A stretch of DNA of 64,000 nucleotides, taken from contig NZ_CP108070.1 in NCBI RefSeq assembly GCF_036178845.1, positions 10,664,001-10,728,000 of the forward strand, in the 5' to 3' direction. The number at the start of each line of letters is the position of its first letter. Position 1 is the first letter of the stretch. Below are positions 25,851 through 35,150 of this stretch, in pieces. The position numbers and the translations under genes are program-made. A model generated the notes under the pieces. That model was not told the origin of the DNA and made no database searches. It was given only the letters and a program-made list of their open reading frames with translations. The DNA is from Streptomyces sp. NBC_00271 (GTDB lineage: Bacteria; Actinomycetota; Actinomycetes; Streptomycetales; Streptomycetaceae).

Positions 25851-26603
25851 CTACCGCGCCTTCGGCGAGGTGTAGCCGATGACCCTGCCCGCCGTGGCGG
25901 CCTGGGTCTTCTTGTAGGTGAGCTGCTCAAGCGAGGTGTTGCCCTCCACGGAGTTGTAGACCTTCCTGGCGGTGTTGTACGAGGTCACGACGCCCACGTG
26001 GTCGGCCCGGCCGTCACCGTTGTTGTCGTAGCTCACGACGTCACCGGGCCTCGGCTTGTAGGTGTTCGCCGCCACCTGCGCCTTGGTGTGCCAGGTTCCG
26101 TTGGACCTGCCGTACGTGCGGAAGGAGTCGGCTGCCGCGTTCAGGCCGGTGATCTTCGCCTTGCCCCAGTACCAGGTGTACTTGGCGAAATCTGCGCACC
26201 AGGCGCGCGAGGTCCACTTGACGCTGGTCCAGGTCTTCGTCCAGGCGCCGTTGACCTTGATGTACATGTAGCCCTTGCTCGTCCCGCATGCCTGGCGGTT
26301 GACGATCGTGCCGGTGCGGGGCGCGCTGGTGTGGTCCCACTGGAGGTTTGCCTTCGCCGTCCAGAAGCCGGTGTAGAAGTTGCAGTTGTTCCTCTCGGTG
26401 TCGCCGTCCTTGGCGTCGCCCTCGTACTTCCGCTTCTGCACCTCGGCGTTGCCGCTCGTGTACTGGCCCAGCGCCTGCTCGGCGATCAGCGCCCCCGGAG
26501 CGGTCGCCGCGTGGGCCGGGGCGGCCATGACGAGGCTCCCCAGTGTCATGGCCAGGGCCGCCCCCGCGACGGCTGTGGTCTTCACCGTGTTCCTTGCGGA
26601 CAT
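25851..26603 (-). CDS. Secreted CHAP-domain protein
   Basis: 250 residues with a Sec signal peptide (KTTAVAGAALAMTLGSLVMA then APAHA-ATA, cleavage near residue 33). The mature part carries a C-terminal CHAP amidase/endopeptidase fold: catalytic Cys in SRAWCADFAKYTW and His in GRADHVGVVTSY, with YKPRPGDVVSYDN between. Likely cleaves peptidoglycan or acts in cell-wall turnover outside the cell. Confidence 0.85.
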   Translation of the reverse strand: MSARNTVKTTAVAGAALAMTLGSLVMAAPAHAATAPGALIAEQALGQYTSGNAEVQKRKYEGDAKDGDTERNNCNFYTGFWTAKANLQWDHTSAPRTGTIVNRQACGTSKGYMYIKVNGAWTKTWTSVKWTSRAWCADFAKYTWYWGKAKITGLNAAADSFRTYGRSNGTWHTKAQVAANTYKPRPGDVVSYDNNGDGRADHVGVVTSYNTARKVYNSVEGNTSLEQLTYKKTQAATAGRVIGYTSPKAR

Positions 26604-27463: not shown

Positions 27464-27629
27464 GCCCCAGCTCCTTCCGCTCGGCCGTCCTCACAGACAG
27501 ATCTTCTCGTACGGCACCTCGGCCCGGTACCTGTGTCAGGTCGACGTTCCACCGGTAGGTGGCGGAGGCAGGTTCGCCCCGAATTCCGTGAACCGTGATC
27601 GTTTTGTCAGACACGTCCTAGAAGCAATG

Positions 27630-28474
27630 CCATTGCGTTATTGGTCCGGGGGCTGGGGTCGTGTGATGAGGATGGCTTGAGTGCCGGTGTGGGTGGGTTG
27701 GGGCCATGTGTGGTGTTCGGGCCGCTTGAGCCGGTAGTTGGACATCTTGCGTTTCACCACACGGGGCTGGCTGCGGAGTCGTCTGACGGGCAGGAGCCTT
27801 TCCAGAAGGTCCTGTTGGAGGATTCGCGATGCTCTGACCAGGAGGTGAGGGGGACAAGCTGCCTGGCGTGACGGTCACACTGCGGCGGGCGGACCGCAGG
27901 GTTTCGGTGAAGGAGACCCGGTCGGGGTCGAGCTGACGGGTGGCCGCGGTTCTCAGCATGAGCTCACGCAGGGCATGGTGGACCAGGAGAGGAGCCCAGA
28001 TCTGCTGGCGGACACCCTCAGGGGTCTTGCTGCTGAGCACGACCCCCGCGCCCCGCTGGTGGGTTTTGATCTCGGCGAAGACAGATTCGATCTCCCAGCG
28101 TTCACGGTAGAGGGCGGCCAGCTGCCGGGCCGGGTAGCGGCGGGCGTCGAGGAGGCTGGTGACAAGACGGTAGCCGTCGGCGGTGGCTTTGAGCTGGTAG
28201 GCAAGGACACGGACCTCGACCGGATCCCGGCGGGGCCGGGTCGGTGGAGGCATGGATGTGGGAGAGCCAGACCCGTCGCGAAGTCGCTTGTCGACGGGCA
28301 GGATGCGGTTGGCGGGCACCCGCCACAGCAGATCGGCTCCGGTGGCGGTGAACGCCTGCCACAACGGGACACCAAGGAACTCACGGTCGGCCAGGACGAG
28401 CTGGCCCGGGCCGCAGGAACGGGGCAGGCGGCCGACCAGGGTGACTTCCCCGGTGCGGCAGCCGGCGAGTCCGC
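27630..28474 (-). pseudogene. IS4-family transposase remnant
   Basis: C-terminal half of an IS4-type DDE transposase: LADREF with a catalytic Asp region, VLAYQLKATADGYRLVTSLLD, and YRERWEIESVFAEIKTHQRG, the YREK-like motif with the catalytic Glu. The N-terminal part is missing; the frame runs in from about 28474 without a start. The tail is frameshifted near 27780-27880, since a MSNYRLKRPEHHTW end typical of the family is readable in another frame. Dead. Confidence 0.8.
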
Positions 28475-29421: not shown

Positions 29422-32055
29422 TCAACCGTCACCCTGCTCGATGTCCAGATGGATCGGACCCCGGAGAACGGGGCTGGGTCGGTACGGCGGCGGATCGGCG
29501 ACCAGCCTGGGTCGGTCGAGCCGGCGTACCAGCTCGGTCAGCGCAATCTGGGTTTCACGCCGGGCCAGCGGGCCACCGAAGCACAGGTGGATGCCGCTGC
29601 CGAACCCCAGGTGCTGGTTGTCACGCCGATCCGGGTCGAATCGGTCCGGATCGTGGAAGCGCTTCGGGTCGCGGCTGCCTGAGGCGAGCATGAGCATGAT
29701 CTGCGAGCCCTTGGGGATGACGGTGTCAGCGACGGTGATGTCGCTGTACGCCGCCCGCCAGGGAATGATGTGCACGGGGGGCTCGTAGCGCAGCAGTTCC
29801 TCGACCAGCGGCACGATCAGGTCCGGTTCGTCTCGCAGTCGTTGCAGCACCTGCGGGTGGCGCAGCAGCGTCAGCATGCCGTTGGTGATGAGGTTGACGA
29901 TGGTCTCATGGCCGGCGATGAGGAACAGTTTGGCGGTGGCCACGATGTCGGCGTCGGCCATCCGACCGTCGGGTCCGTCGTAGTTGGCCAGCCGTGACAG
30001 GAAGTCGACTCCCGGCCGTCCGTGGCGCTGTTCCACCAGCTCGCCGAGGCACTGGCGCAGATCTTTGCGGGCCTGTACGCCCTTGTCCAGTTTCTCCTTC
30101 GGGTCGGTCTTGGGGTCGTAGTCGATCGAGTTCATGATGTCGTTCACCCAGAGGTGGAACCTCGGCTCGTCCTCGCGTGGCACGCCGAGCAAGCGACAGA
30201 TCACGGTGACGGGAAGCGGGAAGGCGAAGTCGTCGACGACGTCGATCCGCTCCCTGCCCGCCAGATCGTCGATCAGGCTGCCGACGGTGGCGGTCAGGAA
30301 ACCTTCAAGTCCGGTCACCAGCCCAGGGGTGTGCGGGGGGCCGAAGTGACGCATCGCCATACGCCGCAGGCGATCGTGCTCGGGCGAGTCCATGTGGATG
30401 AACGACGACGGGGCCCCTCCGTCGCCCGAGGGCATCGGACACGACAGATTGCGCACGTCGGAACTCAGATGCGGGTCATTCAGTACGTCCGTGATCTCGC
30501 GATAGGCGCTGATGACGTAGCTGCCGTCCTCCTGCCGAGCCACTGGCGTCCTGCGCAACTCGGCATACAACGGGTAGGGGTCGGCCCGGGCGGAGTAGTC
30601 GAAGATCCGTTGCAGCGTGCCGGACGTGCCGGGCGTCCCGCTCGTCCGGCCTCCCTCCTGCCGATGCCGATGCCGCTGACCGGCCGTGACGCGGCGCTCA
30701 CCCGGGTCATGGCCTGTGACGACCACCGTGGCGCCCTGCGCGAGCCGGGCGGGGCCGGGGAAGTCGACGGGCACCGGCTTCATGTCGGCCGGCTGGTCCG
30801 GCGTTGGGCAGGGGGGCGGGAAAGGTGCTGCCGTCTCGATCAACCGTCGGTAGTGGTCCAGCCACTTGCCGTTGTTGAAGCTCACGGCGGCCGTGACGCG
30901 GCCCCGATAGCCATATGCGGTGACGAAACGGTGGTCGTCCAGCGATCCCTGGGTGACGACCACCTCGTCGGCGAAGGTCGGCACGCCGACGGACTTGATG
31001 TTGACGCCGAACTGGATCGACCAGAACAGCGGGATGGACAGGTGGGGCCGGCGGTCCGCCTGGGCGCTGACCATGTTGTGTGCCGCGACCTCTGCCTGCT
31101 CCACGGCGTTGGACCAGTGCTCCAGTGCGATGAGCCGGTATTCGTAGATGGGGTTCGGGCAACGTGCCACGTCTCCCGCGGCGAAGACGTCGTCGGCGAC
31201 GCGGCCATGGATGTCGAGGGCGCGGCAACCCGTGTCACAGGTGATTCCCCACACGCCCGCCGCCAGTCCCGACTCCCGTAGCCACTCGGTGTTGCGGATG
31301 CTCCCGAGCGCCACCACCGCCACATCGGCGTCGATGGTGCTGCCGTCGGAGAAGTGGGCGCGGCGGAAGTGCCCCTGGGCGTCGCCTTCCAGCTTGGTGA
31401 CTTCGACGCCGCACCGCAGGTCGACGCCGTGGGCGCGCTGCATGTCCGATGCCACCTCGCCGACCATGGCGCCGAGTGCGCCGACCAGCGGGGCCGGTGC
31501 GAGTTCGGCGACGGTCACCGGGATGTCCCGCTCGCGGCAGACGGAGGCGATCTCGGAGCCGGTGAATCCCGCACCGATGACCAGTACGCGGGAGGGCCCG
31601 GCGGCGAGGGCTCGCTGCAGGCTCTCGGCATGCTCGCGCGTACGTACGACGAACACTCCGGCCAGGGCCGCCTCGGACTCGACGAACCACGGCCGGGCCC
31701 GTACCCCGGTGGAGATCAGCACCCGGTCGAAGGGAACCTCGCGTCCATCGGCGAGATGTACGTGGTTGGTCGCGAGGTCCAGCCCGCTGGCGGGCACGCC
31801 CAGCAGCCACTGCGCATCGATGCCACGACGGCGGGGCAAAGTGGTGCCGTCGGCCGGCACCCACCCGGTCAGTACTTGCTTGGACAGGGGAGGCCGGTCG
31901 TAGGGCTCGCCCAACTCGTCACCGATCATGGTCAACGATCCGGTGAAACCCTCGTCGCGCAGAGCCTCCGCGGCCCGCAGCCCTGCCAGCGACGCCCCGA
32001 CGATCACGACGCGGCCATCGCGATTGAACGCACGCAGGTTGTCGGCACTGGTCAT
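29422..32055 (-). CDS. Ferredoxin reductase-cytochrome P450 fusion
   Basis: 877 residues in one frame. Residues 1-410 are a pyridine-nucleotide ferredoxin reductase: FAD motif VVIVGASLAGLRAAEAL, DRPPLSK, NAD motif VLVIGAGFTGSEIASV, and VFAAGDVARCPN. Residues 411-482 are a Pro/Gly/His-rich linker (HRHRQEGGRTSGTPGTSGT). Residues 483-877 are a bacterial P450: I-helix FLIAGHETIVN, ExxR in EELLRYEP, and heme loop FGSGIHLCFGG with the Cys thiolate near 825. The ATG at 32055 overlaps the ferredoxin stop (TGATG). Together they would form a compact electron chain for monooxygenation of an unknown substrate. Separate genes are the norm, so this fusion is unusual; a lost stop between two genes is the alternative. 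Confidence 0.9.
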   Translation of the reverse strand: MTSADNLRAFNRDGRVVIVGASLAGLRAAEALRDEGFTGSLTMIGDELGEPYDRPPLSKQVLTGWVPADGTTLPRRRGIDAQWLLGVPASGLDLATNHVHLADGREVPFDRVLISTGVRARPWFVESEAALAGVFVVRTREHAESLQRALAAGPSRVLVIGAGFTGSEIASVCRERDIPVTVAELAPAPLVGALGAMVGEVASDMQRAHGVDLRCGVEVTKLEGDAQGHFRRAHFSDGSTIDADVAVVALGSIRNTEWLRESGLAAGVWGITCDTGCRALDIHGRVADDVFAAGDVARCPNPIYEYRLIALEHWSNAVEQAEVAAHNMVSAQADRRPHLSIPLFWSIQFGVNIKSVGVPTFADEVVVTQGSLDDHRFVTAYGYRGRVTAAVSFNNGKWLDHYRRLIETAAPFPPPCPTPDQPADMKPVPVDFPGPARLAQGATVVVTGHDPGERRVTAGQRHRHRQEGGRTSGTPGTSGTLQRIFDYSARADPYPLYAELRRTPVARQEDGSYVISAYREITDVLNDPHLSSDVRNLSCPMPSGDGGAPSSFIHMDSPEHDRLRRMAMRHFGPPHTPGLVTGLEGFLTATVGSLIDDLAGRERIDVVDDFAFPLPVTVICRLLGVPREDEPRFHLWVNDIMNSIDYDPKTDPKEKLDKGVQARKDLRQCLGELVEQRHGRPGVDFLSRLANYDGPDGRMADADIVATAKLFLIAGHETIVNLITNGMLTLLRHPQVLQRLRDEPDLIVPLVEELLRYEPPVHIIPWRAAYSDITVADTVIPKGSQIMLMLASGSRDPKRFHDPDRFDPDRRDNQHLGFGSGIHLCFGGPLARRETQIALTELVRRLDRPRLVADPPPYRPSPVLRGPIHLDIEQGDG

Positions 32056-32279
32056 CACGGCGACGCCTCCGTCGGTGCGTGCCGCGCATCCAGCTGGTCG
32101 ACCAGGATCGCCTGGACCGGGCAGGCCGCCGCGGCACGTAGCACCTGGTCGCGCCGGGCGTCGTCGGGGTTCGCGTCGTACATGAGCGCTTTCTCACCGT
32201 GCATCCGGAACGCCTCCGGAGCCAGGAACGCGCGCTGCGCATACCCCTCGCATCGGGAAAGTTCAACGACAACTTTCAC
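32055..32279 (-). CDS. [3Fe-4S]-type ferredoxin with a missing cluster ligand
   Basis: 74 residues. The fold matches P450-partner ferredoxins: VKVVVELSRCEGYAQRAFLAPEAF... then LRAAAACPVQAI. The cluster motif should be C-x5-C...CP; the second Cys is Arg here (CEGYAQR), explained by one base change TGC to CGC. Two Cys remain, so a normal cluster is doubtful. The GTG at 32279 follows GGAGG. The stop overlaps the start of the reductase-P450 gene, so this is the first gene of the operon. Confidence 0.8.
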   Translation of the reverse strand: MKVVVELSRCEGYAQRAFLAPEAFRMHGEKALMYDANPDDARRDQVLRAAAACPVQAILVDQLDARHAPTEASP

Positions 32280-33493: not shown

Positions 33494-33590
33494 AGGTCAA
33501 TGGGCTGGTGTGACCGGTACTCAGGGTGCTCACGCTGGTCGTGGGCGGGAGCCTGTGGAGTAGATCGTCTGTCAGCGGTTGACTTCGAGG
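33494..33590 (+). repeat. Left 97-bp inverted end of the composite unit
   Basis: Pairs with 37864-37960 in reverse orientation, with only a handful of mismatches. It includes the stop of the IS5-type transposase and the terminal AGGTCAA. Confidence 0.75.
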
Positions 33591-34009
33591 TTCGTCAGAA
33601 CGAGCAAGGCTCGCAGGAGGCGGGTGGCGCGGGCGGGGTCGGTGCGGAGCTTCGTGAGGGTCCGCCAGTTCTTGAGGTGCGCGAAGCCGTGTTCGACTGG
33701 CGCGCGTCCGACGGCGAGGACGTGGTTGGCTTCCTTCTGGCCGGGGGTGAGTTTGTGGGTGCGGCTGGCGTGGAAGCCGGTGACGATCACGGGGTCGAGT
33801 ACGTCGTTGTCCAGGCCGCGGAAGCCGAGGTCCGCGAGGGAGCCGAGGCCGGCGGCGCGCAGGTGGGCCGGGATGTGGTCGTGGCGGGCGGCGGTGATGT
33901 CGTGGGTGCGGCCGGGCCGGGCGGCGGATATCCAGATCACGCGGCCGCGTTCGTCGGTCAAGGCGAGGAAGTGCAGGCCGTGATGGTGGTGTTTGATGCC
34001 CCTATGTTT
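33572..34009 (-). pseudogene. IS5-type transposase, C-terminal half
   Basis: Reads GIKHHHHGLHFLALTDERGRV, ARPGRTHDITAARHDHIPAH, LGFRGLDNDV and VEHGFAHLKNWRTLTKLRTD to LEVNR-stop, i.e. the DDE_Tnp_4 catalytic half with the final Glu. It is cut at about 34009 by the IS110 element; the N-terminal half continues at 35377. Confidence 0.85.
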
Positions 34010-34010
34010 G

Positions 34011-35150
34011 TCAAGCTGCGGTTGTGAGGTTTGATGGATCGTCAGGCTGGTGGTGGCATGCGGTCATGTCGGCGCGTATCAGCGCGTAGACCTCGCGGGC
34101 CGCGTAGCGTTTCAGGCAGCGCATGATCTCGCGTTTGCCTCGCCCCTCGGTAGTGCGTCGCTCCAGGTAGGAGCGGGTGCGTTCGTCCTGGCGCATGCGG
34201 GTGACCAGGATGCGGTGCAGCGCGGCGTTGGCCTGTCGGTCTCCGCCCCTGTTGAGCCGACGGCGCCGGGACTTGCCCGAGGACTTCTCGACAGGGCTGG
34301 CGCCGCACAGCGCGGCGAAGGACGCCTCGCTGCGCAGTCGCTCAGGGTTGTCGCCGGCGGTGATCAGCAGGGCCGCGGCGCTGTCCGGCCCGATCCCGAA
34401 CCGCTCCAGCAGGCTGGGTGCGCTTGCCTGGACCGCTGCGGTCATTCGCCGCCCAAGCTCGGTGACCTCCTGCCGAAGCCGCGAGACGCGCTGTGCGAGC
34501 AGCCGGAGCGTGAAGACTGCCGTGTCGGCTGCTGGGTTGCCGTCGCAGGGATCGGGCAGCTCCGCGCAACGGCGGACCAGTACCGCATTCGAGAGCGGCT
34601 CCAGCTCCTCGCGCAGGGCGGATGGAGCGTTGACCAGCACGGCCTTGAGCTGGTTGAGCGCCTGGGTGCGGGCCTTGACCGCGGAGTTCTTCGTCAACCG
34701 GAGCATACGCAGCACCTCTACCTGCCCGTCGCCGCTCTTCGGCAGCGCCCGTGCGGTGCCCGACAGTGCGGCTCGGGCGGCGGACTCGGCGTCGACGGCG
34801 TCGGTCTTGCCGCGGCGACGCCGGGCGGATCGGTCGGGCTGGTTAACCTCTACCACCGGCACCCGCTGGGTCGCGAGGTAGCGGGCGAGTCCAGCACCGT
34901 AGGAGCCGGTGCACTCCACACCGGCCCGCAGCACGGTTCCGAACTGGCGCGTCCAGTCAAGAAGTTGGCCGTAGCCCGCCGCGGTGGCCGGGAACTCCCC
35001 GGTGTCCAGCAGCCCGCCCAGATGGTCAAGGACGGCGCCGACGTGCACATCCTTGTGGGTGTCGACTCCGAGCACCACCGAACCCGGCGCGGCAGCGGCC
35101 GTGGCGGCTTGGAGGGTGTGGAAGGCAGCGGGCATGCTGAGGGTGGTCAC
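34011..35150 (-). CDS. IS110-family transposase (RuvC-like DEDD recombinase)
   Basis: 379 residues. The N-terminal RuvC-like domain has GVDTHKDVHV (Asp), ECTGSYGAGLARYL (Glu) and KTDAVDAESAARA (paired Asp). The C-terminal Tnp20 domain has GIGPDSAAALLITAGDNPERL and GASPVEKSSGKSRRRRLNRGG, with the Ser used for strand exchange. All family motifs are present, so it is probably active. This enzyme class uses a bridge RNA for target choice. Confidence 0.92.
   Translation of the reverse strand: MTTLSMPAAFHTLQAATAAAAPGSVVLGVDTHKDVHVGAVLDHLGGLLDTGEFPATAAGYGQLLDWTRQFGTVLRAGVECTGSYGAGLARYLATQRVPVVEVNQPDRSARRRRGKTDAVDAESAARAALSGTARALPKSGDGQVEVLRMLRLTKNSAVKARTQALNQLKAVLVNAPSALREELEPLSNAVLVRRCAELPDPCDGNPAADTAVFTLRLLAQRVSRLRQEVTELGRRMTAAVQASAPSLLERFGIGPDSAAALLITAGDNPERLRSEASFAALCGASPVEKSSGKSRRRRLNRGGDRQANAALHRILVTRMRQDERTRSYLERRTTEGRGKREIMRCLKRYAAREVYALIRADMTACHHQPDDPSNLTTAA

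What the first reader, a model, noticed from the sequence alone, without database searches (positions are those of the whole stretch)
29422..32055. Ferredoxin reductase fused to a P450 in one 877-residue protein
A full class I ferredoxin reductase (two Rossmann motifs) continues in frame through a Gly/His/Pro linker into a complete P450 (AGHET, ExxR, heme Cys). Known natural P450 fusions mostly use CPR, phthalate-dioxygenase-type reductases or ferredoxins; a reductase-P450 fusion with a separate, translationally coupled ferredoxin is an unusual arrangement. The ferredoxin-reductase step would be intermolecular and the rest tethered.
Basis: partly seen in the sequence, partly recalled or inferred. 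Interest (0 to 1): 0.8.

Follow-up and report, generated by a model that had tools for sequence, protein, structure and literature searches.

The report
Ferredoxin reductase–P450 fusion in Streptomyces
A bacterial oxidising enzyme (a cytochrome P450) and the reductase that feeds its electron chain, normally two neighbouring genes, have become one protein in a group of Streptomyces through loss of a stop codon, and the small electron-carrier gene beside them is decaying in several of these strains.

Summary
On the minus strand, 32058/32055 to 29422, one frame encodes a ferredoxin reductase (FdR) followed by a P450. The fusion recurs in 23 other genome loci, 2 plasmids and database proteins P0001-P0008, so it is no sequencing error. 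Relatives mostly keep two genes. At codon level the FdR stop TAG became sense (CAG in 18 of 24 fused genome loci), the ribosome-binding spacer became linker, and the P450 ATG is replaced in 23 of 23 alignable loci. Both domains are under purifying selection. The locus matches the published three-gene Fd-FdR-CYP147 operon (inference; no named CYP147 sequence compared). The P450 class table I read has a ferredoxin-P450 fusion but no reductase-P450 fusion with a free ferredoxin. New point: the window's ferredoxin has lost a cluster cysteine (CX5C to CX5R). Ferredoxins are broken in 7 of 22 assessable fused genome loci, by about six lesions, against 0 of 75 assessable two-gene loci. Six of the 7 share a genome with a close two-gene paralogue, which may supply ferredoxin in trans; but that trend is confounded with presence of a second P450 gene beside the operon. 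Activity is untested.

The parts
29422..32058 (-). FdR-P450 fusion ORF, 878 aa from GTG 32058 (877 aa from ATG 32055)
   Evidence: full-length fused homologues P0001-P0008 and P0010
30814..32013 (-). ferredoxin reductase domain (Pyr_redox_2 aa 16-322, Reductase_C aa 345-415)
   Evidence: matches biphenyl dioxygenase ferredoxin reductase structures over aa 16-426
30619..30813 (-). linker aa 416-480: FdR C-terminal tail shared with two-gene FdRs, then translated former intergenic spacer
30658..30660 (-). former FdR stop codon, now CAG (Gln467); TAG in many two-gene relatives
30649..30660 (-). former stop and ribosome-binding spacer (CAGGAGGGAGGC), now translated as QEGG
30643..30645 (-). former P450 start codon, now ACG (Thr472)
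29425..30618 (-). P450 domain (aa ~481-878)
   Evidence: CYP164A2, 3r9b, aa 478-872
32055..32279 (-). upstream ferredoxin gene, GTG start 32279-32277, 74 aa; stop overlaps FdR ATG by one base
   Evidence: Fer4_13 and Fer4_15 above their cut-offs
32232..32234 (-). Arg16 codon (CGC) at the position of the second cluster cysteine

Best explanation
The protein is a class I P450 system of the Fd-FdR-CYP147 operon type in which the reductase and P450 genes fused. Shown from sequence: (1) relatives have Fd, FdR and P450 as three genes; (2) where FdR and P450 lie in frame, change of the FdR stop TAG to CAG opens the spacer, and the P450 start is replaced by different codons in different lineages; (3) both domains stay under purifying selection and the catalytic motifs are intact. 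Inferred: NAD(P)H reduces FAD in the FdR domain; a separate small [3Fe-4S] ferredoxin takes one electron at a time and shuttles it to the heme of the same or another copy; the long linker keeps donor and acceptor close. Inferred for this genome and less certain: because the cis ferredoxin lost a cluster cysteine, ferredoxin comes in trans, most likely from the two-gene paralogous operon at G000:C1:7293898-7296538 (FdR 84%, P450 79%, ferredoxin intact).
For: The fused frame is in 24 genome loci and 2 plasmid loci. Former stop, of 24: CAG 18, CGG 3, CCG 1, CAA 1, unalignable 1. Former start, of 24: ACG 17, GTG, CTG, ATA, ATC, CCG, TCG 1 each, unalignable 1, ATG 0. Fused loci fall in one 100/100-supported clade of 26 rows that also holds four two-gene loci (L029 and L030 left out as partial). 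Window against L009: FdR 12 nonsynonymous / 24 synonymous, P450 23/24, ferredoxin 9/0. Ferredoxin broken in 7 of 22 assessable fused genome loci, 0 of 75 assessable two-gene loci, 74 distinct proteins. Six of the 7 have a close two-gene paralogue in the genome against 2 of 15 intact ones. Gene order, sizes and CXXYXXC motif agree with Fdx3-FdR1-CYP147G1 of M. marinum, where only Fdx3 of 11 ferredoxins worked (PMC6237146, passages and section 8).
Against: No activity, expression or structure data; the AlphaFold model was too poor to use (mean pLDDT 42.7). CYP147 membership is inferred from operon anatomy. Supply in trans has a clear exception, L144 (ferredoxin broken, no close paralogue), and two intact loci that do have a close paralogue, L020 and L129. 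The trend is confounded: all 7 fused loci without a second P450 gene upstream have a close paralogue, 1 of 15 with it does. The ferredoxin's excess of nonsynonymous change is seen for window-L009 (9/0, not significant alone, p 0.12) but other pairs of that lineage give 4/3, 7/3, 10/8 and 10/11. L029 has lost its FdR N-terminus. Selection rests on pairwise counts; the codon-model run printed no omega.
Confidence: 0.66

Rival explanations
1. The fused copies are redundant operons on the way to becoming pseudogenes: stop loss, start loss and ferredoxin lesions are steps of decay, with the two-gene paralogue doing the work.
For: Six of seven fused genome loci with a broken ferredoxin share a genome with a close two-gene paralogue; L029 has lost part of FdR; the window locus is flanked by transposase remnants.
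Against: The frame runs through FdR and P450 in the fused loci apart from L029's missing N-terminus and L030, which is cut by a contig end. In the window lineage, after the cysteine loss, the fused ORF keeps dN/dS 0.20-0.33 in 5 of 5 pairs. Fifteen of 22 assessable fused loci keep an intact ferredoxin and 13 of those have no close paralogue.
Confidence: 0.2
2. The ferredoxin is kept because of its neighbourhood, not because of the fusion: where a second P450 gene lies just upstream, the ferredoxin also serves that P450; where the operon has moved away from it, the ferredoxin decays.
For: A 433-aa P450 (82-98% identical) lies upstream in 15 of 22 assessable fused loci and in 0 of 17 two-gene loci examined; ferredoxin is broken in 2 of 15 with it and 5 of 7 without (Fisher 0.014).
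Against: Two-gene operons have no such neighbour and yet keep the ferredoxin (17 examined; 75 of 75 intact); L020 and L129 keep an intact ferredoxin without it; L018 and L144 have it and lost theirs.
Confidence: 0.25
3. The Arg-substituted ferredoxin still works in cis with an altered cluster.
For: The substitution is shared by window, L009, L145 and L146, so it has persisted; the other two cysteines remain; part of the pairwise counts show some constraint.
Against: In M. tuberculosis Fdx all three equivalent cysteines (12, 18, 56) bind the cluster (PMC9868604, passages); L146 adds a stop codon.
Confidence: 0.08
4. Assembly or sequencing artefact joining two genes.
For: Two-gene relatives have the stop at this place.
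Against: Same fusion in many genomes and data sources, with several different start-codon states.
Confidence: 0.01

Closest known systems
Fdx3-FdR1-CYP147G1 of Mycobacterium marinum and other CYP147 operons (PMC6237146: abstract, passages, section 8)
   Same: Neighbouring ferredoxin, reductase and P450 genes; ~70-aa ferredoxin with CXXYXXC(X)nCP (in the window's relatives); ~466-aa reductase; a Streptomyces example (CYP147B1) is named
   Different: Three genes there (in Myxococcus xanthus ferredoxin and reductase are fused); here reductase and P450 are fused and the window ferredoxin reads CXXYXXR
Class V P450: CYP51-ferredoxin fusion of Methylococcus capsulatus (PMC9868604 discussion section; PMC9112060 table)
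   Same: Class I-type chain with one junction fused, there too proposed to arise by loss of a stop codon
   Different: There ferredoxin is fused and reductase separate; here reductase is fused and ferredoxin separate
Class VII CYP116B/PFOR fusions (PMC9868604 discussion, PMC9112060 table)
   Same: Reductase and P450 on one chain
   Different: PFOR carries FMN and a 2Fe-2S centre (position after the P450 recalled); here an N-terminal FAD-type FdR and no ferredoxin domain
Ferredoxin-FdR fusions such as P0014, P0021, P0034, P0069, P0120
   Same: FdR 66-69% identical to the window's
   Different: They fuse the other junction of the operon (ferredoxin to reductase)

Membership tests
Class I P450 redox system | FAD/NAD(P) ferredoxin reductase of the Pyr_redox_2 + Reductase_C type | tested here: met
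   sequence matches to BphA4-type reductase structures
Class I P450 redox system | P450 heme domain with I-helix, ExxR and Cys motifs | tested here: met
Class I P450 redox system | three separate polypeptides | tested here: not met
   FdR and P450 are one frame
CYP147 family | more than ~40% identity to a named CYP147 (nomenclature rule recalled) | not tested
   no named CYP147 sequence came up in the calls made
CYP147-type operon | ferredoxin, FdR and P450 genes together, ~466-aa FdR, CXXYXXC ferredoxin | tested here: inconclusive
   gene set, FdR size and relatives' motif agree; the window ferredoxin itself reads CXXYXXR
Single-cluster [3Fe-4S] ferredoxin, CXX?XXC(X)nCP | three cluster cysteines | tested here: not met
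   second cysteine is Arg in the window; met in 75 of 75 assessable two-gene loci
Class V (P450-ferredoxin fusion) | ferredoxin domain on the P450 chain | tested here: not met
   no Fer4 match on the 878-aa protein
Class VII/VIII (PFOR, BM3) | FMN and/or 2Fe-2S reductase domains on the P450 chain | tested here: not met
   one search shows only Pyr_redox-type, Reductase_C, NAD_binding_8 and p450 matches
Electron transfer NAD(P)H to FAD to ferredoxin to heme | measured activity | not testable with these tools
   sequence only

The most novel reading that the evidence does not exclude
Fusing reductase to P450 frees the enzyme from its own ferredoxin: the tethered FdR-P450 runs on ferredoxin borrowed from sister operons (or, most boldly, on none), so the cis ferredoxin gene is lost again and again after fusion, as was not seen in any of the 75 two-gene operons scored.
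Probability: 0.25. Interest if true: 0.72.

Novelty: new variant of a known kind. Interest (0 to 1): 0.55.

Why it matters
It adds a natural domain arrangement absent from the P450 class table I read: reductase tied to heme, ferredoxin left free. It gives a natural experiment on which link of the class I chain matters: the fusion, start-codon losses and ferredoxin losses can be read at codon level, and several of the genomes hold a two-gene sister operon as control. It is also a possible practical scaffold, a ready-made reductase-P450 chain needing only a small ferredoxin.

Tried and rejected
Artefact: rejected because the fusion recurs.

One origin versus several, or re-splitting: not settled. 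The best tree puts four two-gene loci (L045, L046, L047, L051) inside the fused clade, but holding the fused rows together is not rejected (AU p 0.31; FdR alone 0.24, P450 alone 0.44). The four keep a TAG and an ATG at the old places, so they may be the unfused ancestral state.

Close-paralogue rule: in the first 16 assessable fused loci a broken ferredoxin went with a close two-gene paralogue (84-87% in the best match) in 6 of 6, an intact one in 1 of 10 (Fisher 0.0009). Six fused genomes examined afterwards: four agree (intact, no paralogue: L130, L141, L142, L143), one is neutral (L129, intact with paralogue), one contradicts (L144, broken without). Together 6 of 7 against 2 of 15 (Fisher 0.002). 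When I checked the report I found a confounder: a second P450 gene upstream in 15 of 22 loci, nearly exclusive with a close paralogue (1 of 15 against 7 of 7, p 5e-5). Related rows are not independent; I call it a trend. A further genome draw brought no new fused genome.

Fusions elsewhere: P0010 (58%, keeps a Met at the junction), P0249 and P0246 are further reductase-P450 chains. P0249 and P0246 are N-terminally incomplete, and P0012, P0247 and P0280 look like deleted or frameshifted pieces, so I count P0010 alone as a clean, probably independent case. No three-domain Fd-FdR-P450 protein appeared in the lists I saw (best 120 per search, candidates capped).

AlphaFold gave an unusable model; no structure search was made. 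The codon-model omega was not printed. Downstream neighbours looked at differ among loci and named no pathway. Literature: seven searches of an open-licence library; in the listings and the passages I opened I saw no natural FdR-P450 fusion. Subscription papers and preprints were not searched.

Full report
WHAT IS THERE. On the minus strand one frame runs from GTG 32058 (ATG 32055) to a stop at 29422, 878 or 877 residues. Pfam finds a ferredoxin reductase (Pyr_redox_2 16-322, Reductase_C 345-415) followed by a P450 (554-848). By sequence it matches BphA4-type ferredoxin reductase structures over residues 16-426 and P450 structures such as CYP164A2 over 478-872. Upstream, overlapping the FdR ATG by one base, lies a small ferredoxin gene (GTG 32279, 74 aa). 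The genome has 12.28 Mb in 3 contigs and the window lies at C1:10664001-10728000.

THE FUSION IS REAL AND SHARED. A protein search returned eight full-length homologues of the same plan at 77-95% identity (P0001-P0008), shorter ones P0009 and P0011, and P0010 at 58% (only the 7,994 candidates sharing most words were scored). A scan of 84,980 species genomes with peptide patterns from this protein found 88 relatives and returned the best 80; 16 are fused (L009-L020, L023, L029, L030, L059; L075 was a false flag of my script, its two hits being different genes). Draws of Streptomyces genomes gave a fused frame in 7 of 392 and of the family in 8 of 394; the draws overlap. In 296 genomes of the class 17 had a match at E 1e-110 or better, and only the window's own was fused over its length. 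Two large Streptomyces plasmid records are fused too. Dropped as duplicates: L089 (same as L018) and L131 (same as L015). My set is 24 genome loci (window, the 16 above, L090, L129, L130, L141-L144) and 2 plasmid loci (L145, L146).

HOW IT AROSE. Many two-gene relatives end FdR with TAG, then a short spacer with GGAGG, then the P450 ATG; in some the two genes share a frame, for instance 9-18 bases apart in L021, L022, L024, L025 and L026 (35 loci aligned). In fused loci the bases typically read CGG CAG GAG GAA GGC CGG ACG ACC: the stop is sense and the ribosome-binding site is translated. Over the 24 genome loci the former stop is CAG in 18, CGG in 3, CCG in 1, CAA in 1, unalignable in 1 (L030); the former start is ACG in 17, GTG, CTG, ATA, ATC, CCG and TCG once each, unalignable in 1, ATG in none. 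Different replacements suggest that the start was lost more than once after the stop. Against full commitment: L129 keeps a GTG there, and L011, L017, L019 and L143 have an ATG and L023 a TTG a few codons further on, so internal initiation may survive in those strains. In the window no such codon remains. The careful tree (41 rows; L029 and L030 left out) gives one 100/100 clade of 22 fused and 4 two-gene loci; whether the fused ones are one clade is undecided.

HIDDEN BY ANNOTATION. Some public records list the P450 half alone: P0127 (416 aa, S. gilvosporeus) is found letter for letter, after its first residue, inside the 875-aa frame of L142, and P0131 (397 aa, S. noursei) inside that of L013. 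P0001 is recorded whole, as 'Cytochrome P450' of S. mirabilis.

SELECTION. Between window and L009, FdR shows 12 nonsynonymous and 24 synonymous changes and P450 23 and 24, with about 2.8 and 2.9 nonsynonymous sites per synonymous site (Fisher 3e-7 and 1e-4). The fused ORF has dN/dS 0.20-0.33 in five of five pairs within the window lineage, within the range of the chosen two-gene pairs. So both halves are maintained.

THE FERREDOXIN. Relatives carry C-X5-C...CP. In M. tuberculosis Fdx the equivalent cysteines 12, 18 and 56 bind the cluster (PMC9868604, passages). The window's second cysteine is Arg; L009 and plasmid loci L145 and L146 share this, and L146 also has a stop. Other fused loci show other lesions: L015 (5' part replaced), L018 (gene gone), L023 (first cysteine lost and a stop), L059 (internal deletion with the third cysteine), L144 (frame broken and third cysteine lost). 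That is 7 of 22 assessable fused genome loci (L029 and L030 cannot be scored) by about six separate lesions, plus both plasmid loci of the window lineage. Among 78 two-gene loci with FdR (fetched up to L117), 3 could not be scored (L008, L067, L092) and 75 of 75 are intact, 74 distinct proteins; Fisher for 7 of 22 against 0 of 78 is 1e-5, ignoring relatedness. Window-L009 the ferredoxin has 9 nonsynonymous and 0 synonymous changes (p 0.12), but four other pairs of the lineage give 4/3, 7/3, 10/8 and 10/11, so free decay is not proved by counts alone.

TRANS SUPPLY OR NEIGHBOURHOOD. The broken-ferredoxin genomes of window, L009, L015, L018, L023 and L059 each hold a close two-gene operon with intact ferredoxin (L003, L048, L044, L024, L054, L021); of the first ten intact loci only L020's does. 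Six fused genomes looked at afterwards gave four in agreement, one neutral and one against. In total 6 of 7 against 2 of 15. In M. marinum only Fdx3 of eleven ferredoxins supported CYP147G1 (PMC6237146, section 8), which would explain why only a close paralogue could help. But the fused loci also fall into two settings: 15 of 22 have a second P450 gene (82-98% identical to L011:2984-4285) upstream, and 14 of these have no close paralogue; the 7 without it, the window among them, all have one (none of 17 two-gene loci examined has it; in L090, L130, L141 and L144 it is seen only in part). Ferredoxin is broken in 2 of 15 with it and 5 of 7 without (p 0.014). So ferredoxin may be kept for the second P450. 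The data cannot separate the two. Decay is not confined to ferredoxins: among two-gene loci, L067's FdR match begins at residue 190, L037 and L067 gave short P450 matches, and L050 and L060 had a stop within the P450 match.

WHAT IT WORKS LIKE AND WHAT IT IS. It works, by inference, like a class I chain of the CYP147 operon type, whose M. marinum member hydroxylates undecanoic acid at the omega-1 position (PMC6237146 passages; also PMC9962201 passages). Membership in CYP147 was not tested against a named sequence. In the classes listed in PMC9112060 (table, passages), class V joins ferredoxin to heme and VII and VIII join other reductases; none joins FdR to heme with a free ferredoxin. In other bacteria the first junction (ferredoxin to FdR) is fused (M. 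xanthus in PMC6237146). So both junctions of this kind of operon have been fused in nature.

VERDICT. A genuine, recurrent and selectively maintained fusion of an unusual kind, with an unexpected side story of repeated ferredoxin loss. The chemistry is untested.

Noticed in passing
L011:2984-4285 and 14 other fused loci, e.g. L013, L142, L016: A conserved second P450 gene (433 aa, P450 Pfam, distant from structures in the PDB) lies upstream of the fused operon in 15 of 22 assessable fused loci and is absent from the window.
   Followed up: partly
window 27618-28364, 33572-33961, 34011-35150 (minus): DDE-type transposase remnants and an IS110-family transposase on both sides of the operon.
   Followed up: partly
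window 25851-26603 (minus): A 250-aa protein with a CHAP domain downstream of the fusion.
   Followed up: no
G000 C1:2605604, 7293898, 8832133, 10804764: Further FdR-P450 gene pairs in the same genome (54-84% identity), one about 110 kb from the window locus.
   Followed up: partly
L146 (NZ_CP108366.1 440786-453410): Its ferredoxin looks chimeric: first part like the fused clade, last part like two-gene ferredoxins, as if by gene conversion.
   Followed up: no
L045, L046, L047, L051 junctions: Two-gene loci next to or inside the fused clade have different small deletions in the FdR tail; in L045 and L046 the shifted FdR frame ends overlapping the P450 start by four bases.
   Followed up: partly
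proteins P0255-P0348: Long P450 relatives include ones whose source names pair P450 with class 3 adenylate cyclase/TPR proteins or RND exporters.
   Followed up: no
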